This document shows positions 53,698-64,000 of a DNA stretch of 64,000 bases, piece after piece. The notes beneath the pieces were generated by a model. That model was given only the letters and a program-made list of their open reading frames with translations, was not told the origin of the DNA and ran no database searches. Within the stretch, counting starts at the first letter, position 1; every line of letters begins with the position of its first letter. Source of the stretch: an uncultured Bacteroidales bacterium (GTDB lineage Bacteria > Bacteroidota > Bacteroidia > Bacteroidales > F082); contig ONFF01000020.1 in assembly GCA_900317055.1 (NCBI GenBank), forward strand, positions 99,079 to 163,078, read 5' to 3'. The translations under genes were made by a program, and so were the position numbers.

Positions 53698-54354
53698 TCA
53701 CTGTAATTCACTCATAATTGTCTTAGCAATATCAGAGTAATCCAAATCTTTAAGCATATCAGGTGTGATTCTTATTGAATATGCAGGTTTATGATACGCA
53801 TAGTGAAGTGGACTATAAATTGCATTGGTTTCTTTGGCGAAGTTGAGCAATAGGTATTTTTTATCACTAGTGGACACGCCAAGGAATAATGATTTTTCAT
53901 TTTGAAGTTTGAGGAATTTATCATCACGAAGGTCCATCTTTTTATATCTATTCCAGTAGCCTTTGTAATCATTCATCAATTCCAGGTGACGACTTTTTCC
54001 ATCATATTCAACAAGACAGTCACTATTTGAAGAAACATTTTTGTCTGGAAGAATAATCCTTTCTTTGTCTTCACCTGCTTTCAACACAATTAAACCATTG
54101 TTTTTCAATTGTTCGATAATATAGTCTTCCATTACCCATGAAGCAGCCAAATCCATAGCATATTGCATAGGGGTACGGGCATCTCTATTATGACGACAAG
54201 ATTGGATGTTGTTATAAATTACGGGATATTTGGTCTTTACAGCAACCTCGCTGCCAGACAAAACGCAAATTGTAGAATTAGGATATCCTAATTCTTTAGC
54301 AATTTCTTGCAGAGGCTTTGAAAATAGTTGCTGAATTTCTCTAAATATACTCAT
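53698..54354 (-). CDS. Putative type II restriction endonuclease
   Basis: A 218-residue protein placed as expected for the nuclease of the system: it follows the controller gene on the same strand and faces away from the C5-methyltransferase. The family is not recognised. The likely catalytic region is SDCLVEYDGKSRHLEL then NDYKGYWNRYKK (residues 107-138): an Asp, a Glu in LEL and a Lys, though not spaced as a canonical D-x-ExK site. The DNA is AT-rich compared with pheS. The recognition sequence cannot be predicted. The assignment rests mainly on context. Confidence 0.65.
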   Translation of the reverse strand: MSIFREIQQLFSKPLQEIAKELGYPNSTICVLSGSEVAVKTKYPVIYNNIQSCRHNRDARTPMQYAMDLAASWVMEDYIIEQLKNNGLIVLKAGEDKERIILPDKNVSSNSDCLVEYDGKSRHLELMNDYKGYWNRYKKMDLRDDKFLKLQNEKSLFLGVSTSDKKYLLLNFAKETNAIYSPLHYAYHKPAYSIRITPDMLKDLDYSDIAKTIMSELQ

Positions 54355-54500
54355 TTTTAATCCTTTAAATAATCAATCTGAAGCAAAGAGAGTAAAATAT
54401 ACCTGCCCTCCTAAGTTCTTTGGTATGACTGGATAGTTTGGCATGTTTCCATCCAGAGGCCCTATCTCTTTGTTCCATGGTTTCAAACGCATTAGTCATA

Positions 54501-54728
54501 TTATAAGTCCTTTAAGAAAAACTCAATATCTTTACCATATCGTTTAGCCAATTCATAAAGCAATATGGCAGAAATGTTCATTTCGCCATTTTCAATCTTT
54601 GACAAATGGCTTTGGGAAATGATACCTTCTTGTTGCAATGTGGTTTGCTTAATTTTCAACTCATTACGAGTCTTGTACAAAAGCGCGCCTAGCTTTATTT
54701 TCTTAACGCTAATCTCTTTCTTGTTCAT
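54501..54728 (-). CDS. XRE-family controller (C) protein of the type II system
   Basis: A 75-residue helix-turn-helix protein. GALLYKTRNELKIKQTTLQ is helix 1-2 and GIISQSHLSKIENGEMNIS the recognition part, with a C-terminal AKRYGKDIEFFLKDL. The ATG at 54728 gives the size typical of C proteins; the frame is open to 54818 but that would cross the operator. It lies upstream of the nuclease gene and diverges from the methyltransferase, the classical C-R / M layout in which the C protein delays nuclease synthesis. The stretch between this gene and the nuclease (54355-54500) has no gene. Confidence 0.88.
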   Translation of the reverse strand: MNKKEISVKKIKLGALLYKTRNELKIKQTTLQQEGIISQSHLSKIENGEMNISAILLYELAKRYGKDIEFFLKDL

Positions 54729-54753
54729 AAGTGCAAAATAAAGACAAATTATC

Positions 54754-54796
54754 AAATATTCCAATTGGAATATTTCAGAAAAAAGTGTTACCTTTG
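54754..54796 (+). promoter_or_regulatory. Palindromic operator overlapping the methyltransferase promoter
   Basis: A perfect 22-bp palindrome at 54754-54775 (AAATATT, CCAATTGG, AATATTT). Its TTGG half covers the likely -33 (TTG at 54765-54767) for the -7 TACCTTTG at 54789-54796. It is 26 bp from the controller start and 36 bp from the methyltransferase start, so it is well placed as the C-protein binding site between the divergent genes. Confidence 0.8.
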
Positions 54797-54810
54797 CAGC
54801 CAAATTTTGA

Positions 54811-55983
54811 ATGACCATGTCTTATAAACTGGTTGACCTTTTTGCTGGAGTAGGTGGTTTATCGTATGGTTTTGCCCATGACGATTCTTTTGAAATAGTG
54901 GCAGCTAATGAGATATTGGAGCCGATGGCGAAGGCCTATTCATTGAATCATCCATCCGTGAAAATGTACAATTGCGACATCAAGGACTTTGGTCTAAAGA
55001 ATTTGACAGAAGACTTAGGGATAAAAGAGGGGGATGTCGATGCTGTTGTAGGCGGTCCCCCTTGCCAAGCTTATTCCACAGCAGGCAAAAGGGCTGAAGG
55101 AGACGAGAGGGGTATGCTATTTCAACAGTATTATCGTATTTTGTCGGAATTAAGACCCAAATTGTTCGTTTTTGAGAATGTCAAGGGGCTACTTTCCATG
55201 CAAGGGGGGAAACTGGTCAGAAATATCATCAGTTTGTTTGAATCGCTTGGGTATCATGTGGATATAAAGCTGCTCAATGCCGCTGATTATGGCGCACCTC
55301 AAATAAGGGAAAGGGTGATTATTGTGGGAAACAATTTTGGAGGGGCATTCCCTTATCCACAACCGACGCACTATAACCCGGAGGACCCATCAAGCTTCAA
55401 AAAAGGGTTAAAGCCTTATGTCACATTGGGAGAAGCAATAGGTGATTTAACCGTCATTGGTACTAATGAGGAAGGGTTTGAATATGCGAAAGACCCCGAA
55501 AACGATTACCAAAGACTAATGAGAAAGAATGCTCCTGCCAGGATTATGGACCATAATTCACCAAACAATAATCCCAAACTTGTTGCCCTTATGAAAGCTC
55601 TCCCTGATGGAGGGACGCCTTTGGATGTCCCAATAGAGCTTAGGCCAAGCAGTGGATTTGCCAATTGTTATTGCAGGTTATGGTGGAATCGTCCGAGCAC
55701 AACAATAACCAGAAACTTTGGATGTGTTTCATCAGGACGATGTGTGCATCCAAAATCGCCTAGACCCTTATCCACAAGGGAAGGCGCAAGAATTCAAGGT
55801 TTCCCGGATGATTATTTGTTTTACGGCTCAAGGAGCGACAAAAACCTTCAAATTGGCAATGCAGTACCTACCTTTTTGGCTGCAGCCATAAAAGACTCGG
55901 TTAAGGAATTTCTTGACAACCCGGATAAGCATAAACTATCAGATGCCAACCATGGTGAGCTGCTTTTGCCTTTGGATTTTTGA
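54811..55983 (+). CDS. DNA (cytosine-5-)-methyltransferase, type II system
   Basis: A 390-residue enzyme. Motif I LVDLFAGVGGLSYGF, motif IV GGPPCQAYSTAGKR with catalytic Cys85, motif VI FENVKGLL, motif VIII QIRERVIIVG, motif IX (REGARIQGFPDDY) and motif X (QIGNAVP) all occur in order. The target-recognition region lies between VIII and IX (about 190-320), with GFANCYCRLWWNRPSTTITRNF near its end. It marks self DNA against the nuclease at 53698-54354. Start is 54811 or the in-frame ATG at 54817; with the -7 at 54789-54796 either gives a very short leader. Confidence 0.95.
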   Translation: MTMSYKLVDLFAGVGGLSYGFAHDDSFEIVAANEILEPMAKAYSLNHPSVKMYNCDIKDFGLKNLTEDLGIKEGDVDAVVGGPPCQAYSTAGKRAEGDERGMLFQQYYRILSELRPKLFVFENVKGLLSMQGGKLVRNIISLFESLGYHVDIKLLNAADYGAPQIRERVIIVGNNFGGAFPYPQPTHYNPEDPSSFKKGLKPYVTLGEAIGDLTVIGTNEEGFEYAKDPENDYQRLMRKNAPARIMDHNSPNNNPKLVALMKALPDGGTPLDVPIELRPSSGFANCYCRLWWNRPSTTITRNFGCVSSGRCVHPKSPRPLSTREGARIQGFPDDYLFYGSRSDKNLQIGNAVPTFLAAAIKDSVKEFLDNPDKHKLSDANHGELLLPLDF

Positions 55984-56208: not shown

Positions 56209-59200
56209 TTAACAATCCATCGATTTCATTACCTCTAACAAAGCTTGGTAACTATCAACTTCGTGGTAACGGACATTGGATGTGGATAAGTTGTTGAACA
56301 ACTTCTTGGCACAGTCAATCTTTGCCTTTTCCACGCTTTTCAGTTGCATGGAATCCATCGAGCCTTTGGTTTCGGCAATGAAGAACACATGCTTGATGCC
56401 CATGTTGTCGTTGAAGGCAATGGCCCAGTCGGGGGCGTAGTTGCCTACAGGTGTTGGGATGTGGAATGACCTCGGTAATTTGGCATAGACGCACACTTCA
56501 TCCGCTTTGTCCAAGTCTTCGGCAAAAGTGCGCTCGCCTTGGCTGTCGGGGAAGACATAATCGAGAATGTGCTTCTTGGCCTCGTAGGCTTTGTCCACCG
56601 TTTGGCGGCTCTTCTCCTTGGTGAAGATGTCGGAATCGTATTGGTTTTCCGTTCGATTGTAGCTGATGTGCTCCACAATCATCGTGGCTTTCTGCTCACG
56701 GATGATATGGCTTACCTTGCGGATGAACTCTTCGGGGTTGTTCTTGAACATGTACAGCTTCGACCGCTGAATGCCCTTCAGAATGCGAGTGACCGTGCGG
56801 CGGGTTAGCGTGGCTGCTTTGGCGATGTCGCCCACCAAGTCATAGGGCACATTGCTGGTTGATACATCACGCATTTCTTTTGTACGGGTGCTTTGTTCAC
56901 CAGTGAAATCCAACTCGTCATCGCCTTGCGTGCCTGTGGTCACTACATACTTCAACTGCGTGACATTCAACTCGCTGTTGATGGCGGCTATGGCCTTCTG
57001 AATTAGTTCCTCACTGTCGTAATGCACCGTATAGACATAGCGATGGTTGATTTCATTCCACAAGGCTTTGAATTCCTTCTTATCTGCATTGTCGTTCAAA
57101 CGCTCGTTCACCACTTCTGCCTTGCTGTTGGCATCTTCCACCATGTCTTCCAAAGCGGCGGGATCAAAGATACTCTGAATCAGTTTATGCACCTGCTCTT
57201 CAATGGGTTGCAGTTTTTTACTCATCGGAGCCAAAGTACCCTTCTCCATATCGGTATGATAGTCTTGCAGGATATTACCCTTCTCATCGATATAGTCATT
57301 ATCGAACAGATAACTTACGATACTGGCAGCCTCCTGCTCCGAAATGGTGTGTTTCTCCTCACCCACTTTGACGGTAACCCCTTTGAAGTAATCGACCGTG
57401 GCCTGTGTCGGACGTTCACGCAAAGTGTCTTTGGTTTCCTTCTGCAAAGCATCAACAAAAGAACTGTAGTTCTCGTTGGCGATGACGGTCAGTTTGTTGG
57501 TATCGTGTACGGCATCCCCCAAGCGTTCCTTGTCCATGCGGTTGCCGTCGTTATCCACACAGATGCGTAAACCACGACCCACTTCCTGACGTTTGGCGGT
57601 GCTGGAGTTGGCGTGGCGCAACGTACAGATTTGGAACACATTGGGATTGTCCCAACCTTCGCGCAAAGCAGAATGGGAAAAGATGAATCGTGTTGGCTCA
57701 TCGAAACTCAACAGGCGTTCCTTGTTTTTCAGAATCAAGTCGTAAGCAGAAATGTCGTCCGATGTGTCCTTCCCGCGTTTCACCTCACTATCAATTGAAT
57801 GGCCTTTCTTGTCGATGGAGAAATAGCCGTTATGTACTTGTGCAGCGGTAAAACGGCGCAGGTATTTTTGATAATCGTCCTCAAACAGCGTCAAGTTTTC
57901 GTTCAGATAGCGATTGTATTCGTCCTCAAACATCTTCCACAGCGGACCTTGCACCTCGTTCCCGTCCGCGTCATAGCTCTTGTAGTTGGCCACCTCGTCA
58001 ATGAAGAAAAGCGAAAGGGTCTTGATGCCTTGCTGAAACAAGGCTCTCTCCTTCTCGAAATGCGACTTGATGGTTTCCCGAATCTGAATCTGTTGAATGG
58101 CTTTTTCGCTGACATCGCCCATCACCTCGCCCTGACGCAGTTGCTTGCCGTTTTGGAAATAGACCGTGTTGGTTAGCGGGTTGATTTCCGTGATGACAAA
58201 ATCTTTGTAGGCAGGAAGTTGCGAAATGGCAAACAGCGAATCGCCTTGCTCGAACTTGCAGAGTTGTCGGCGGGTGGCAGCGGCACCTTTCACCTCGATT
58301 TCCAACCTGACCACCGGTGCGTGGTTCCTCGAAAGGATGATGCTGTCAAAATAGATGTAGCTCTGAGTGCCTAACAAGTTCTGCACCGTGATGCCTTTCA
58401 CCTGGATTTTCTTCACCAAGCGTTGTTTGTAGGCATCGTAGGCATCCAACGCATAGATGCAGTTGTGTGAGGTCTTGTGGGTGGCGGAATAGTTCAGCAC
58501 AAATAACGGCTTGAAGTTCTTCAAGGCTCTTTGGGTGGCTTCGCCTTCCATCTTCTGAGGCTCGTCCATAATAATGATGGGACGGTTGGCGGCAATCACA
58601 TCGATGGGACGACGGCTTTGGAAATCGTCGCGCTTGGAGTAGATGATACGTGCCTCCTTGTTGGCCGCGCCTTCCTTAAACGAGGTGTTGAACGCCTGCA
58701 CGTTAATAATCATCACATTGATGCTGGCATCGCTGCTGAACGAGTCGATTTGGGTGAGGTTGGCGCTGTTGTAGATGAAATAGCGGGCTTTCTTGCCGTA
58801 GAGTTCCATGAAATGCTCTTCCAGCATGGTGAAGCTCTTATAGACTCCTTCGCGGATGGCGATGCTGGGCACCACCACGATGAACTTCGACCAGCCGAAG
58901 CGTTTGTTCATCTCGAACATGGTCTTGATATAAACGTAGGTCTTGCCCGTGCCCGTCTCCATCTCCACATCCAACGAGCAGGCACCGAGCCCATTGGTGG
59001 CCGCTAAAGACTTACTCTGCGGAATGTCGTTCTGCACCTGCTGATGATGGATGTTCTCCAACAGCTGACTGGCGTTGAGCTCCACATCGGCATTGCGGTA
59101 GCCCACATATTCCTCCTCAAACTCAGCCTTCAGCTGCTGTTTCTGCTTGCCCAAGTCGCGGCGATACTGCGCGTTGGTCTTCGAGGGTTGTCCCGCGAAC

Positions 59201-59262
59201 ACGCTCACTGTGCTTTCCACCGCATCGGTCTGGTATTGTTGTATTTTGAATTTGAATTTCAT
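56209..59262 (-). CDS. res: Type III restriction enzyme, Res subunit
   Basis: A 1017-residue helicase-nuclease. Walker A is METGTGKT at 101-108; motif Ia FIVVVPSIAIREGV; Walker B IIIMDEPQKMEG; motif VI region QEVGRGLRI. The C-terminal endonuclease domain holds YAPDWAIAF and AETKGSMDS, the PD...ExK site. With Mod it translocates and cuts at unmethylated inverted sites. It begins 3 bp after the stop of the AlbA-like gene. Its first 64 bases are repeated at 61110-61175, upstream of that gene. Gene order mod - AbiJ-like - AlbA-like - res differs from the usual adjacent mod-res. Confidence 0.95.
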   Translation of the reverse strand: MKFKFKIQQYQTDAVESTVSVFAGQPSKTNAQYRRDLGKQKQQLKAEFEEEYVGYRNADVELNASQLLENIHHQQVQNDIPQSKSLAATNGLGACSLDVEMETGTGKTYVYIKTMFEMNKRFGWSKFIVVVPSIAIREGVYKSFTMLEEHFMELYGKKARYFIYNSANLTQIDSFSSDASINVMIINVQAFNTSFKEGAANKEARIIYSKRDDFQSRRPIDVIAANRPIIIMDEPQKMEGEATQRALKNFKPLFVLNYSATHKTSHNCIYALDAYDAYKQRLVKKIQVKGITVQNLLGTQSYIYFDSIILSRNHAPVVRLEIEVKGAAATRRQLCKFEQGDSLFAISQLPAYKDFVITEINPLTNTVYFQNGKQLRQGEVMGDVSEKAIQQIQIRETIKSHFEKERALFQQGIKTLSLFFIDEVANYKSYDADGNEVQGPLWKMFEDEYNRYLNENLTLFEDDYQKYLRRFTAAQVHNGYFSIDKKGHSIDSEVKRGKDTSDDISAYDLILKNKERLLSFDEPTRFIFSHSALREGWDNPNVFQICTLRHANSSTAKRQEVGRGLRICVDNDGNRMDKERLGDAVHDTNKLTVIANENYSSFVDALQKETKDTLRERPTQATVDYFKGVTVKVGEEKHTISEQEAASIVSYLFDNDYIDEKGNILQDYHTDMEKGTLAPMSKKLQPIEEQVHKLIQSIFDPAALEDMVEDANSKAEVVNERLNDNADKKEFKALWNEINHRYVYTVHYDSEELIQKAIAAINSELNVTQLKYVVTTGTQGDDELDFTGEQSTRTKEMRDVSTSNVPYDLVGDIAKAATLTRRTVTRILKGIQRSKLYMFKNNPEEFIRKVSHIIREQKATMIVEHISYNRTENQYDSDIFTKEKSRQTVDKAYEAKKHILDYVFPDSQGERTFAEDLDKADEVCVYAKLPRSFHIPTPVGNYAPDWAIAFNDNMGIKHVFFIAETKGSMDSMQLKSVEKAKIDCAKKLFNNLSTSNVRYHEVDSYQALLEVMKSMDC

Positions 59263-59263
59263 A
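59198..59263. repeat. 66-bp direct repeat, copy at the 5' end of res
   Basis: Matches 61110-61175 with four mismatches. Together they bracket the AlbA/Schlafen-type gene. This copy is part of the intact res gene. Confidence 0.92.
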
Positions 59264-59265
59264 CT

Positions 59266-61077
59266 TTACTCTGATATTATTATCCAATGTCCACCTCTCG
59301 TAACAGGCCCCTCTCGTTTTATTTGGTTATTGAATTTGAGCTTATTTATATGTTTTTGAATTGCCGTTATTGAAATCCCCAATATAGAAGATAGCTCTTT
59401 CCTAGTAATATACGGATTCTCTTGTATCAATGTCAATACGGAAATAGTTGTTGATTCCGATTCAGACAACCCATTAGACAACCCATTAGACAACCCATTA
59501 GACAACCCATTAGACAACCCATTAGACAACCCATTAGATAACCCATTAGATAACCCATTAGACAACCCACTTTGATTGTATTCCGAATTAAGTTTATACG
59601 TTGTCCAACGCCCCTTGTTATCGGCTATCAACAAGTCTAAATCCGTTAATAATTTAAGCACTTTTGCCACTTCTAACGAATTCTTTTCCAATAAAGTCTG
59701 CAAGCGTTGATTGGACACTTCCTTTTCCACATAAGCAACAGATAGAGCTGACAGTGCATCACTAGATAGATTTTTGTAACTATCGCCTAATAACTTCTGC
59801 AAAAACTCCTCCACCTCTTTTGGATACATGGACAACATCCATAACTTCATGCGAACTTCTTTAAGTTCTGTTATTTCATCCAAGTCCGGTTTGCGCCATC
59901 TTTCTTGTTTACAGGCATCAAGAATTGTTGGGAAACCAGAGCCAAGGTTTTCACCATATCCTATCATCCGCAGCATGTTTTGGATTCGAGGGTTTCGGGC
60001 TTTTGAACTGCCACCCTCATAGATTTGGGAAACAGGGAGTTTCAATGTCCCGGGATTCCGGAAACAAAAGCAGCTGTCATGTTTCTCGATTCTCAGAATA
60101 CTACCCGACAAGAAGAAATCCGCATGAATGATACTGTTGGTGAGTGCCTCACGAATGGCCTTGTGGGCTGGCGTGTCATCGTTTCTTTGCATACCTTCCA
60201 ATCGGAAAGGACGTTTCAAATCGGATGTCAGTTTTGTCAGAACTTTACGGAAAAAGTTATAGAGATTGTTCTCCCATGTACCATCGTATGTAAGACGGTC
60301 GCTATAGCGCATATCCCCTTGCAGATGAGTCAAATCCACATAATCCATCCTAAAATTCGAGAAACGTTCCCTGACGGGCAATCCTTTCCCGAACATCAGA
60401 AGCCCTGCAAGTGTAAGTCCCTCTTTTCCGTTTGAGCGATCAATTGTGTATGCTCCAAATTGCTTAAGGAACTCTTTATCGTCTAATTGGTTATAGGTAT
60501 GGCCTATGTTTCTGTTTTCAAATTCATTCCTATAGCTTTTCAAAGTGGGCATGTCAATATCGTCCATCGTATAGTAGTCAAGGAGATTGCCATCGTTGCC
60601 GTCTTCGTTGGCATCACGAATCATGGCCTTCACTTCGCTTTCGTCGCAATGATAGTCACCCTCGTGGTTGCGCTTGAATGTACCCTTATACACATTGCCA
60701 TTGATATAGATGGGCTTATTGCGATAGATGGCCTGCGGAACATGAATCACAAGCAAAGTGATGCTATCGTCGTATTGGACAACCTGTACATCTTCATCTT
60801 TGAGCAAACAGCCACTGACCTTTTCACTGTTAATTGTATTCCAAAAATCCTTTCGTTGCTGCTCGGCATTGCGGACTCCATAAATCTTGAACCGCTCTTC
60901 CATTGATTCGGCAAAACGGTTTTCTTCTATACCCAGTATGATATAGCCACCGTTGGTATTGGCAAAAGCGGAATAGGTCTCCCAAACAGACTTTGGAAGT
61001 GTGCTTTCCGCCTTCTTGCATTCCAAGGTTACGCGTTCGCCGTATTGCAACAGGTCGTCTATAATATTCTTGTTCAT
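59266..61077 (-). CDS. AlbA/Schlafen-type ATP-binding protein in the type III operon
   Basis: A 603-residue protein. The N-terminal AlbA_2 (Schlafen-like) domain covers about 10-130: ERVTLECKKAESTLPKSVWE and FANTNGGYIILGIEENRF. A HATPase_c_4-like region lies near 310-410 (ALTNSIIHADFF and RNPRIQNMLRMIGYGENLGSGFP). A winged-helix region follows, and the end (from 560) has another (NPYITRKELSSILGISITAIQKHI). Between them is an eightfold NGLS repeat (about 510-546) encoded by a 12-bp tandem repeat. The ATG at 61077 is preferred to a TTG eight codons up. Proteins of this make-up occur in defence islands; it probably regulates or senses rather than cuts. Confidence 0.85.
   Translation of the reverse strand: MNKNIIDDLLQYGERVTLECKKAESTLPKSVWETYSAFANTNGGYIILGIEENRFAESMEERFKIYGVRNAEQQRKDFWNTINSEKVSGCLLKDEDVQVVQYDDSITLLVIHVPQAIYRNKPIYINGNVYKGTFKRNHEGDYHCDESEVKAMIRDANEDGNDGNLLDYYTMDDIDMPTLKSYRNEFENRNIGHTYNQLDDKEFLKQFGAYTIDRSNGKEGLTLAGLLMFGKGLPVRERFSNFRMDYVDLTHLQGDMRYSDRLTYDGTWENNLYNFFRKVLTKLTSDLKRPFRLEGMQRNDDTPAHKAIREALTNSIIHADFFLSGSILRIEKHDSCFCFRNPGTLKLPVSQIYEGGSSKARNPRIQNMLRMIGYGENLGSGFPTILDACKQERWRKPDLDEITELKEVRMKLWMLSMYPKEVEEFLQKLLGDSYKNLSSDALSALSVAYVEKEVSNQRLQTLLEKNSLEVAKVLKLLTDLDLLIADNKGRWTTYKLNSEYNQSGLSNGLSNGLSNGLSNGLSNGLSNGLSNGLSNGLSESESTTISVLTLIQENPYITRKELSSILGISITAIQKHINKLKFNNQIKREGPVTRGGHWIIISE
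59465..59570. repeat. 12-bp tandem repeat inside the AlbA-like gene
   Basis: Eight full units of GACAACCCATTA (two with GAT for GAC) plus a partial ninth. Since 12 is a multiple of three, unit loss or gain changes the number of NGLS residues without breaking the frame. Confidence 0.95.
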
Positions 61078-61087
61078 AGCATCATAT

Positions 61088-61174
61088 TTAATTGAACTCA
61101 ACTATTGAAAACACGCTCACCATGCTTTCCACCGCATCGGTCTGGTATTGCTGTATCTTGAATTTGAATTTCAT
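61088..61174 (-). pseudogene. Truncated 5' remnant of res
   Basis: An ATG at 61172-61174 starts a 28-codon frame ending TAA at 61088-61090. Its first 22 residues (MKFKFKIQQYQTDAVES...VSVF) equal the start of Res except one Thr-to-Met change; the last six are unrelated. The ATG overlaps the stop of the AbiJ-like gene as ATGA, the expected coupling of an intact operon. It marks where res probably began before the AlbA-like gene entered. Confidence 0.9.
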
Positions 61175-62466
61175 AGGCCTGAATTGTTTAGGTGACTTAC
61201 ACATAAGTTAACCAATGAGGCACATCTATTATAAAAATACTTCTTCATTGCATCAGATGGAAAGGCTTTTTTACTTTTTTCAAAATGTCTAATCTGATAG
61301 TTATTACCTAATTTTGATAAAAAAGCAAACTCGTTTTCCAGACACTGACTCATTTCCATTGAACCACATGAGATCTCTTCTTCCAGTTTCTTTAGAGTAT
61401 TTTGTTTGTCATTACCATAACTTGTTTTTACCCTTTCATACGCATCCCAAATTTTTTCAAGTGCAGACTGTATGCTATCAGAATTATTCTCATAACTGAA
61501 TGATTGAGCGCGTTGCAACAATTCTCTCAAATTATCATCATTTTGCGGTAACACTATTTCGGTTTGAAACAACTCTATTGACTGGATTTTACCTGAAACC
61601 AATTTGTAACCATATTTACCAATTACTTTATTGATTTCACCTTCAAATGCTTGCCCTTCAGTGAACCTATAGTATAACTCAATAACATCAAAAACACACT
61701 GAGGGAAATTGGCCATTATAAAGTCTTCAAAGCTATCGGTGTTTTCGTATTTTTTGTTACTATTAAAAGCCTTGGGGCAATAGTATTCTTTCAAGTTATC
61801 CCATACAGCTTCTTTTGTAGGTTTTGTATAATTCCATCCTGTTTCTGTAGTCAAATAACAGGTTTCTTCATACCTGCTCATTAAATCAAACACTTTCTTT
61901 CGATCAACTTTGGCTATTTTGGGCAACGTAATTTTTTTCGTATTCAAATCATCTTCAAAACGCACTGAAAATGGAAGAAACTTCAGCGATTTAATCTCTT
62001 TTTCCGTTAACAATCTCCATGAATAAATAGGTTTCCCTGAAATATAGTGGGATGCATAAAGCTCATATCCATCCTCGCGTAAAAAACCTTGTATTTGAGA
62101 AAAATACTTTTTCAATAAATCTCCCTCAACACAAATCTCTGGATTAAATACTTCAATAAGAAAACGTAAATAGTCCTCATCAGTTCCATCATGTAATGGG
62201 AAACGTTCATCCTCAAACACCCAACAAAGTTCCCAATCGTCATTATTGATGGTATGTTGAATAATATCACCTTCCGCATTTTGATACCTGCTATCATTAC
62301 TTGGCATTTTATCCAGCTGATACAAACGTTTTAGAAAGGAAAGTTCACTGTCAAATCTGCCCCAATATAAATAGCGTTGAATGTCTGATTCAAAAACACC
62401 TACATCCACACCATTCTGAAACAGTTCTTTGATTTGGCGTTTCGTTACATTCGTTATCCTTTTCAT
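61171..62466 (-). CDS. AbiJ-like abortive-infection protein in the type III operon
   Basis: A 431-residue AT-rich gene. Residues 36-112 match what I know of the AbiJ N-terminal domain 3: GRFDSELSFLKRLYQLDKMPS, then DSRYQNAEGDIIQHTINNDDWE, WVFEDERFPLHDGTDEDYLRFL and IEVFNPEI. The rest is a long helical region with no named domain, perhaps the effector. It starts one base after the mod stop and overlaps the res remnant by four bases, so it was an integral part of the operon. Function in abortive infection is inferred from the family. Confidence 0.7.
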   Translation of the reverse strand: MKRITNVTKRQIKELFQNGVDVGVFESDIQRYLYWGRFDSELSFLKRLYQLDKMPSNDSRYQNAEGDIIQHTINNDDWELCWVFEDERFPLHDGTDEDYLRFLIEVFNPEICVEGDLLKKYFSQIQGFLREDGYELYASHYISGKPIYSWRLLTEKEIKSLKFLPFSVRFEDDLNTKKITLPKIAKVDRKKVFDLMSRYEETCYLTTETGWNYTKPTKEAVWDNLKEYYCPKAFNSNKKYENTDSFEDFIMANFPQCVFDVIELYYRFTEGQAFEGEINKVIGKYGYKLVSGKIQSIELFQTEIVLPQNDDNLRELLQRAQSFSYENNSDSIQSALEKIWDAYERVKTSYGNDKQNTLKKLEEEISCGSMEMSQCLENEFAFLSKLGNNYQIRHFEKSKKAFPSDAMKKYFYNRCASLVNLCVSHLNNSGL

Positions 62467-62467
62467 A

Positions 62468-64000
62468 TTATATAATCTTTCTTACCGTCTCTTTCGAATA
62501 CTCCTCCCAAATCTGCTCGAAGTTGTCCGCTACGTTGTCCGTAGCGAGGCTGCTGTCGCGGAGGACGAAGTAGTAGGGATGCTGGCGGGCGATTTCGGTG
62601 ATGGCGGTCTCGTTCACGTCCTTGTCGAAGCAGGCCATGAGGTTGGCCGAAAGCTCGATGCCGAGCTCTATCATGGCTTGGAAAAGCAGGTCCTCGTCGG
62701 TGCGGTCGGGCTTGATGTTGTCCTCGAAGAGCAGGTTCTCGTTGAACTGCTCGGGCGAGTAATACACATCCTGCATATTGGAGCTGTCGAGCTTCAGCAC
62801 GCGGAAGCCGATGTCTAACGGCTTTTGCTCTCCACTAAACAAATCCGTTTGCTTTGTCTTTTGCTCTTCTATGATTTTCTTTCCAGCCCGACGGATACGC
62901 TCTTTGCCGATTTCGCAAATATTCTTGTAACCAGCCTTATATGCCTCGCTTTTCTCGTCCGTGACTTCAGGCAGTTGCACCATGATGAATTTGCGGTTAC
63001 CGCCATCCTCGGCATTGAGTTCCATCACGGCATGTGCTGTGGAGGCGGAACCAGAGAAGAAATCAAGTGCAATATAATCATCTCCTGACATTAGCTTAAG
63101 CATCCGTTGAATTATCTGAATAGGCTTTGGGTAATCAAAGATATCTTTTCCAAGAATACTATCAACAAGTTTCGTTCCTTCATCAAGAGTTGCAGTATCC
63201 TTATAGTACCAGAGATTTATCGGAACTACACCATCATCCAATTCTGATAAAAACCTTTTTAACCGTGGATATGCATTACCTCCATCTTTTCCCCAATAAA
63301 GTCTATCTTCAGCTTCAAGTTGTTCATATTGCTGTTTACTATATTTCCATGCATTTGTTGGATGTTCTACGATTTTTCCAGTAATTGGATTCTTTATTGC
63401 ATAGGACAGATTTGGCCTTTCTTCCTTTGTTCGTTGGCTTGTGAATAAGACGCTTGTCCAAACTCCACGAGGATCATTATCAGGATTCGAATATGTGGCG
63501 TTTTGTTTTTCAGTTCTAGGCTCTCGTAACATAAAGAGTTTGTCAGACTTTCGATAGCATAAGATATGGTCTATGACTGTGGACATCAACTTTGCATCAT
63601 TGTTTCTCGTATAACGCTTTTCCCAAATAATATCCGTGATAAAATTACTTTGCCCCAATATTTCATTGCATACTTTTGCAAGATTTGCAACCTCGTTATC
63701 ATCAATCGAAATAAAAATCACCCCGTCCTCACTCAGCAAGTCCTTGGCCACTTTCAGGCGAGGGTAAATCATATTGAGCCAGTCGGTGTGGAAGCGGCCG
63801 TTGCTCTCGGTGTTCCGCGTGTAAACATCTGTAAGCAAATTTCCCTCTTCATCATAATTCCCACTCTTAGCTCTAAACTCCAAGCTCTCAGTTCTAAAAC
63901 TGTCGTTATACACGAAGTCGTTGCCCGTGTTGTAGGGCGGGTCAATGTAAATCATCTTCACCTTGCCGAGGTAGTTCTCGCGCAGCAGCTTCAGCACTTC
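62468..64000 (-). CDS. mod: Type III DNA adenine methyltransferase, Mod subunit (5' end outside window)
   Basis: About 510 residues are visible; the N-terminus, including roughly a hundred residues before the catalytic motif, lies beyond the right edge. Motif IV is MIYIDPPYNTGNDF near the visible start and motif I (FFSGSASTAHAVMELN) comes about 300 residues later, the order of beta-class N6-adenine methyltransferases of type III systems. The target-recognition region lies between. Motif CGG... of other types is absent. A part of the gene (63868-63900) encoding SFRTESLEFRAKSG has CTCTAAACT-like words. The next gene starts one base after the stop. Mod recognises the site for both methylation and cutting by Res. 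Confidence 0.93.
   Translation of the reverse strand, partial: EVLKLLRENYLGKVKMIYIDPPYNTGNDFVYNDSFRTESLEFRAKSGNYDEEGNLLTDVYTRNTESNGRFHTDWLNMIYPRLKVAKDLLSEDGVIFISIDDNEVANLAKVCNEILGQSNFITDIIWEKRYTRNNDAKLMSTVIDHILCYRKSDKLFMLREPRTEKQNATYSNPDNDPRGVWTSVLFTSQRTKEERPNLSYAIKNPITGKIVEHPTNAWKYSKQQYEQLEAEDRLYWGKDGGNAYPRLKRFLSELDDGVVPINLWYYKDTATLDEGTKLVDSILGKDIFDYPKPIQIIQRMLKLMSGDDYIALDFFSGSASTAHAVMELNAEDGGNRKFIMVQLPEVTDEKSEAYKAGYKNICEIGKERIRRAGKKIIEEQKTKQTDLFSGEQKPLDIGFRVLKLDSSNMQDVYYSPEQFNENLLFEDNIKPDRTDEDLLFQAMIELGIELSANLMACFDKDVNETAITEIARQHPYYFVLRDSSLATDNVADNFEQIWEEYSKETVRKII

What the first reader, a model, noticed from the sequence alone, without database searches (positions are those of the whole stretch)
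59198..61175. 66-bp direct repeat of the res start flanks the AlbA/Schlafen gene: scar of insertion into a type III operon
59198-59263 and 61110-61175 match at 62 of 66 positions. The upstream copy still has the ATGA overlap with the AbiJ-like stop, as if res once followed it directly. The downstream copy belongs to the intact res. Everything between is the AlbA-like gene. The simplest history is mod-abiJ-res, into which the AlbA gene came with duplication of the res start. The repeats could also let the gene be lost again by recombination, restoring an intact operon.
Basis: seen in the sequence. Interest (0 to 1): 0.75.

Follow-up and report, generated by a model that had tools for sequence, protein, structure and literature searches.

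The report
Stacked cargo genes in restriction operon
A bacterium's DNA-cutting defence operon carries a leftover copy of the start of its cutting-enzyme gene, most likely a scar left when two versions of the operon were fused so that their extra defence genes now sit one behind the other.

Summary
The repeat is real: 62 of 66 bases, at the stated places. The upstream copy starts in an ATGA overlap with the AbiJ_NTD3 stop; the downstream copy is the start of intact res; an AlbA_2/HATPase gene lies between. The predicted empty site exists: L040 has mod-abiJ-res, one res start, no AlbA gene. L036 has the same copy-AlbA joint behind a different gene (TPR). So the scar reading holds, but "duplication on insertion" looks too simple: five of five fresh copies (four joints) are slightly closer to other operons' res starts than to their own, so two alleles were probably joined. 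The pattern recurs: 10 of 82 mod-res loci carry a res-start copy, fresh to decayed, nine before the last cargo gene. Some second cargo genes follow a mod 3' tail, and L047 shows the mirror image in the other slot (mod start fused to a DUF4391 tail). Best reading: mod-res is an exchangeable cargo slot; fusing two alleles stacks their cargo and leaves res 5' ends as scars, possibly reused as short homology for swapping. The window's own AlbA leader shows no mod tail. Old copies decay, so no strong function is implied.

The parts
56209..59262 (-). res: type III restriction subunit (ResIII/DEAD helicase plus RE_endonuc), 1017 aa; its first 65 nt are the downstream copy
59198..59263 (-). downstream copy of the 66-bp repeat: 5' end of intact res (plus one base before the ATG)
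59266..61077 (-). slot-2 cargo gene: SLFN_AlbA_2 + HATPase_c_4 + winged HTH, 603 aa from ATG 61077; 97% aa identity to L036, 83% to L087
61078..61109 (-). AlbA leader between the end of the copy and the ATG; nearly identical in L036; no mod-tail relic found in it
61110..61175 (-). upstream copy of the 66-bp repeat: 5' end of a second res allele, ATG at 61174 in ATGA overlap with the abiJ stop
61088..61174 (-). 28-codon open frame made by the copy (res residues 1-22 with one change, then SIVEFN and stop)
61171..62466 (-). slot-1 cargo gene: AbiJ_NTD3 protein, 431 aa; 97% aa identity to L040, where it directly precedes res
62468..64000 (-). mod: type III DNA methyltransferase, cut by the end of the contig

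Best explanation
The upstream 66-bp copy is the truncated 5' end of a second res allele. The interval between mod and res is an exchangeable cargo slot. Two alleles, one like mod-abiJ-res and one carrying AlbA ahead of res, were fused by one non-homologous joint placed about 65 bp into the first res. Both cargo genes now stand in series, and a short res 5' end is left between them as a scar (structure shown; order and joining step inferred). The joint could arise by homology-facilitated illegitimate recombination, by unequal crossing-over between alleles, or by collapse of a tandem pair of systems; these are not separated here. Once present, the copy and the real res start are short homology arms through which the slot-1 gene or the AlbA block could be swapped by ordinary homologous recombination (inferred from the same joint behind two different slot-1 genes). 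Because the copy keeps the ATGA overlap and its frame ends 10 nt before the AlbA start, translational coupling along the operon is probably preserved (inferred). The copy decays in older cases, so it is mainly a scar.
For: Empty site L040: mod-abiJ-res, single res start; 486 of 500 nt identical upstream of the ATG and 48/50 after it. Same joint in L036 behind a TPR gene: copy, leader and AlbA gene alike, about 96% nt over AlbA. Fresh copies: window, L036, L041, L046, L048 are 49, 49, 48, 49, 49 of 50 to the res starts of L032-L035 and L039, but 48, 48, 47, 47, 46 of 50 to their own res; all five copies read CAG where their own res reads CAA. Recurrence: alignment scores of 52-126 for res-start relics in 10 of 82 loci (63 have an interval of 60 bp or more to scan), next best 37, reversed-sequence control at most 40. 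Reciprocal signature: L041's slot-2 leader is a mod 3' tail plus mod-cargo spacer, 34 of 37 nt to the mod-TPR junction of L036. L074's 331-bp gap holds an AlbA-B 5' relic, a res-start relic, a mod-tail relic, an AlbA2 5' relic and a second mod-tail relic (0 of 200-300 shuffles each). Mirror image in the other slot: in L047 a mod-start copy is fused to a DUF4391 3' tail between two cargo blocks (scores 112 and 109, controls 27 and 34), with GAGC shared at the joint by mod and an L052-type DUF4391 gene (read).
Against: In the window itself no mod-tail relic is found in the AlbA leader (193 of 200 shuffles do as well), so the second half of the signature is missing exactly here; it is missing too in L036, L046, L048 and L051. 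No mod-AlbA1-res single-slot parent was found; the only near relative of this AlbA among 99 genus genomes is L036. The two-allele argument rests on 1-3 bases per case, mainly one shared site; window and L036 share a joint, L032-L035 are near-copies of one allele, and CAA also occurs in single-slot loci. The mod-tail cases L041, L043 and L087 are modest (2, 1 and 4 of 200 shuffles), were picked from 33 leaders, and do not exceed the reversed control (40) when whole intervals are scanned (37, 38, 32; only L074 62, L100 60 and L104 41 do). One leader without a visible story, L120, also reached 0 of 60 shuffles. In slot A only L047, of 12 scored loci in that scan, shows the fused pair. The joining mechanism is not observed.
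Confidence: 0.72

Rival explanations
1. Insertion with long target duplication: the AlbA gene inserted once into the res start of a mod-abiJ-res operon and the target was duplicated, as described for some restriction-modification genes (Kobayashi group).
For: Empty site exists; repeat length is near the reported order of 100 bp (passage in PMC3874152); one insertion suffices for the window taken alone, where no mod tail is seen.
Against: Copies resemble other operons' res starts slightly more than their own; the same joint occurs behind another gene; other loci carry mod tails or a DUF4391 tail at the joint, which target duplication does not give.
Confidence: 0.15
2. The res-start copy is kept because it works: a short leader frame that couples translation of abiJ to AlbA.
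For: ATGA overlap with the upstream stop in the window, and a frame ending near the next start: within about 14 nt in window, L036, L048 and L051, about 33-34 nt before it in L041 and L046 (coordinates). Over the first 48 nt the differences from the own res in window, L036 and L046 are all at third codon positions (2, 2 and 3).
Against: Older copies decay: L051 has 9 differences in 48 nt over all codon positions; L047 and L087 lack the ATG, and L074 has an early stop. A young copy would show third-position differences anyway, since its parent evolved as res.
Confidence: 0.1
3. A site-specific or transposon-like element uses the res start as its attachment or target site.
For: Joints cluster about 50-66 bp into res.
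Confidence: 0.03

Closest known systems
Insertion with long target duplication of restriction-modification genes (Nobusato et al. 2000; Furuta et al. 2010: titles seen in reference lists only; described in passages of PMC3874152 and PMC3031569)
   Same: Restriction-modification locus, empty site in a relative, direct repeat of tens of bp to the order of 100 bp flanking the insert, no transposase seen
   Different: Here the insert is a cargo gene inside a type III operon; copies probably stem from different alleles; joints in some loci carry 3' tails of the preceding core gene; scars are serial and occur in two slots
Abi/HEPN and other genes embedded in restriction-modification operons (PMC3710099, passages read); PrrC in a type I locus as the model there
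   Same: AbiJ-family and other toxin-like genes (that paper also names RhuM and DOC) lie inside or beside restriction operons
   Different: The passages describe associations; the record of how the genes come and go (res, mod and DUF4391 scars) is the new part
Homology-facilitated illegitimate recombination (recalled, not read)
   Same: One homologous anchor plus one joint at little or no homology would give this structure
   Different: Recalled as a mechanism of foreign DNA uptake; here only inferred

Membership tests
Type III restriction-modification operon | mod with N6_N4 methyltransferase domain and res with helicase plus endonuclease domain | tested here: met
   (Pfam and PADLOC); mod is cut by the contig end
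Type III restriction-modification operon (strict two-gene form) | mod and res directly adjacent | tested here: not met
   two cargo genes lie between in the window; 57 of 82 loci have an ORF of at least 80 aa there, 19 have 60 bp or less. Same strand and tight spacing are kept, so this is a cargo-bearing type III operon
Insertion with long target duplication | uninterrupted target in a related genome | tested here: met
   L040
Insertion with long target duplication | the flanking repeats arise from one target, so are each other's closest relatives | tested here: not met
   5 of 5 fresh copies (four joints) closer to other operons' res starts; margins of only 1-3 bases in 50
Transposon or integron cassette | transposase, integrase or fixed ends | tested here: not met
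   none among 17 cargo proteins listed singly nor in the 25 commonest Pfam families of 90 ORFs (capped); joints differ. attC-like structure not tested
Schlafen AlbA_2 proteins with HATPase_c_4 | both domains in one protein | tested here: met
   enzymatic or regulatory function not testable here

The most novel reading that the evidence does not exclude
This type III locus (SNF2 helicase, DUF4391, mod, res) is a capture-and-stacking platform for defence genes: the conserved starts and ends of its core genes act as recombination handles, cassettes flanked by short res-start repeats move between alleles by homologous recombination without any recombinase of their own, and each fusion writes a readable layer (res 5' end, cargo 5' end, mod 3' end) into the operon.
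Probability: 0.35. Interest if true: 0.8.

Novelty: new variant of a known kind. Interest (0 to 1): 0.6.

Why it matters
Defence genes are known to gather in islands and inside restriction operons, but how they enter and leave an operon without breaking it is rarely visible. Here the joints themselves survive, from fresh to decayed, and in one locus also in the second slot of the operon. That makes the order of gain and loss partly readable, predicts where swapped cargo will lie, and gives a cheap search signal (start of the next core gene, tail of the previous one) for recent cargo exchange in other defence loci.

Tried and rejected
Tried: mod-tail relic in the window's AlbA leader (not significant); similarity of that leader to the L087 AlbA leader (356 of 500 shuffles do as well); a block of the window's res shared specially with L036 or L040 that would mark the right-hand crossover (none clear: in 150-bp windows res is a mosaic at about 75-99% to 17 relatives, 87-97% to L036 and 85-97% to L040); plasmid and phage records (one 128-bp match, none); res-start matches elsewhere in the family (26 of 173 genomes, all in the genus) and in the order (10 of 393 genomes, two matches only in the window's own genome); papers on this arrangement (ten searches: none seen that describes it; DUF4391 in one paper, listing only; only open-licence full texts are held). 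Rejected: plain target duplication as the best account; transposon; assembly artefact (same joint in another genome, L036).

The 90 cargo ORFs are mechanical calls of 80 aa or more; they include one second mod gene (L100), two fragments of one broken gene (L087), and truncated or possibly mis-started ORFs. In one search strong upstream mod-start matches in L085, L053/L108 and L119 were set aside because the mod frame there is broken or lacks the usual start, so the start was mis-set; they are not counted as scars. One search's first test of L074 layer 1 used wrong bounds and was repeated with right ones.
Full report
Observation. The repeat is as described. The repeat finder gives 59198-59263 and 61110-61175 with 62 of 66 identical bases. 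All genes concerned lie on the minus strand in the order mod, AbiJ_NTD3 gene, AlbA_2/HATPase gene, res. The upstream copy begins at ATG 61174, overlapping the AbiJ stop as ATGA; the downstream copy is the first 65 nt of res, after which the two sequences part. At E <= 0.001 only these two places match in the held genome. In loci without a relic the best ungapped upstream match of a 50-nt res start is 22-29 of 50, against 48 of 50 here. The contig ends inside mod at window base 64000, so what lies upstream in this operon is not seen in this genome.

Empty site. A search of 99 genomes of the genus with the 66-bp copy found matches in 26; six of these 26 have two matches close together. DNA identity to the window is 486 of 500 upstream of the ATG and 48 of the first 50 after it.

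Same joint, other neighbour. L036 (G069; by the same criterion the record of L058, isolate RUG13648) has mod, a TPR-repeat gene in ATGA overlap with a res-start copy, then the same AlbA gene (97% aa) and res. The sequence from the copy through the leader into AlbA is the same except for scattered changes, among them one indel that breaks the alternative TTG start; over AlbA the DNA identity is about 96%. So the AlbA block, or the gene before it, has been exchanged since the joint formed.

A recurrent pattern. A scan of genome contigs with a res alignment kept 80 loci, its limit; 529 stretches encoded a relative. With the unnamed-genome loci, 95 had a recognisable mod end; after removing 13 duplicates, 82 remained. 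Of these, 19 have at most 60 bp between mod and res, 57 carry at least one ORF of 80 aa or more there, and 26 carry two or more; there are 90 such ORFs in 32 clusters. AbiJ_NTD3/4, SIR2_2 with HerA, Abi_C and GmrSD_N were seen in single scans. PADLOC also gives matches to many of them, mostly candidate families. Local alignment of all res starts to the mod-res intervals gives ten loci with scores of 52-126 (L036, window, L046, L048, L041, L051, L060, L047, L074, L087); the next best is 37, and the reversed-sequence control reaches 40 at most. In nine of the ten the relic precedes the last cargo gene; in L047 it lies directly before res. The joints differ: window/L036, L041, L046, L048/L051/L060/L047 (one AlbA type or its leader), L087 and L074 (grouped by eye).

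Two alleles, not one duplication. In all five fresh cases the copy is closer to the res starts of single-slot loci L032-L035 and L039 (49, 49, 48, 49, 49 of 50) than to its own res (48, 48, 47, 47, 46), and all five copies have CAG where their own res has CAA. The margins are small, rest mainly on that site, and represent four joints rather than five; CAA also occurs in single-slot loci. L051, an older copy, shows no preference (41 and 41 of 50).

The other half of the joint. If two alleles were fused, the slot-2 gene may still carry the 3' end of the mod gene that once preceded it. L041 shows this: after 50 nt of res start its leader is a mod tail plus the mod-cargo spacer, 34 of 37 nt to the corresponding junction in L036. 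With all mod tails as queries, 2 of 200 shuffles reach its score; L043 1 of 200, L104 0 of 200, L087 4 of 200. Over whole intervals only L074 (62), L100 (60) and L104 (41) exceed the highest reversed control of 40; L043 (38), L041 (37) and L087 (32) do not, nor do L090 (38) and L067 (37), for which I have no story. L074 holds a stack of relics in 331 bp: AlbA-B 5' end (0 of 300), res start (0 of 200), mod tail (0 of 300), AlbA2 5' end (0 of 300), second mod tail (0 of 200), then an intact gene and res. L087 has a decayed res start (0 of 200), an AlbA-B 5' relic (0 of 300) and the modest mod-tail relic before its AlbA gene. L100 keeps a whole second mod gene. The window, L036, L046, L048 and L051 show no mod tail in their leaders: in the window itself only the res half of the signature is present.

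The mirror image in the other slot. Between DUF4391 and mod there is a second cargo slot. L047 (G020) carries there a mod-start copy fused to a DUF4391 3' tail between two cargo blocks (scores 112 and 109, reversed controls 27 and 34); mod and an L052-type DUF4391 gene share GAGC at the joint (read). L042 has a decayed mod-start copy (score 56, 0 of 300 shuffles). In the scan of 13 loci with a recognised DUF4391 gene and mod, 12 had an interval to score and only L047 stands out; the other 11 score 29-43 for the DUF4391 tail with controls up to 40.

Mechanism. The simplest account of all cases is fusion of two alleles by one non-homologous joint, keeping both cargo genes and one complete set of core genes. 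Whether the joint comes from uptake of foreign DNA with one homologous anchor, from unequal crossing-over, or from collapse of a tandem pair is not decided. Later exchange through the repeats is inferred from the window/L036 pair, and from L048, whose copy reads ACC where its own res reads TCC. Loss through the repeats is possible but not shown; L047 seems to have lost its slot-2 gene and kept the decayed copy. Older copies decay in all codon positions (L051), so strong selection on the copy is unlikely.

Known or new. Restriction-modification genes that insert with long and variable target duplications, in the order of 100 bp, are described (passages of PMC3874152 and PMC3031569; the original papers were not read). 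Abi and HEPN genes in restriction operons are described (passages of PMC3710099). I saw no paper on serial res and mod scars in type III operons in ten searches of the open-licence library (listings, and passages of four papers). I therefore call it a new variant of a known kind.

Noticed in passing
window 59464-59571: 12-bp in-frame tandem repeat (about nine units, Leu-Ser-Asn-Gly) in the linker of the AlbA gene; L036 differs by 12 nt there. Several AlbA relatives elsewhere show other tandem repeats near the end of the matched part (seen by eye).
   Followed up: partly
82 mod-res loci: The BLAST cluster of AlbA_2/HATPase-type genes is the last gene before res in 16 of 16 loci that have it, fragments included (chance about 2e-6 if position were random). 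Four AlbA_2 proteins without that partner domain (L039, L042, L051, L060) are not last. Either the first kind must sit next to res or it marks the newest layer.
   Followed up: partly
L100, start of the second mod: A run of G near the start of the second mod gene, with the long ORF beginning at the run: possible phase variation.
   Followed up: no
window 53698-55983: A C5-cytosine methylase gene (+), an overlapping divergent HTH gene and a 218-aa protein without Pfam match (both -) lie next to res: possibly a controller-type type II restriction-modification system.
   Followed up: no
L087, mod to AlbA: The AbiJ-like gene is split into two frames, and a short relic resembling the 12-bp AlbA repeats lies before the decayed res start (the repeat relic is by eye).
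   Followed up: partly
L048, L051, L060 leaders: The shared leader of this AlbA type has a TATCTTTG-like box (decayed in L060) just before the ATG, resembling a Bacteroidetes -7 element (recalled motif).
   Followed up: no
L036, L041, L042, L044, L045 TPR genes: TPR cargo genes share a signal-like N-terminus; L041 has two different ones in series, each preceded by mod-type spacer DNA.
   Followed up: partly
L070, L074, L078, L082, L106, L111 cargo: Six loci carry a RhuM-type gene of about 335 aa between mod and res (cluster; six RhuM matches). RhuM linked to restriction genes is mentioned in passages of PMC3710099.
   Followed up: no
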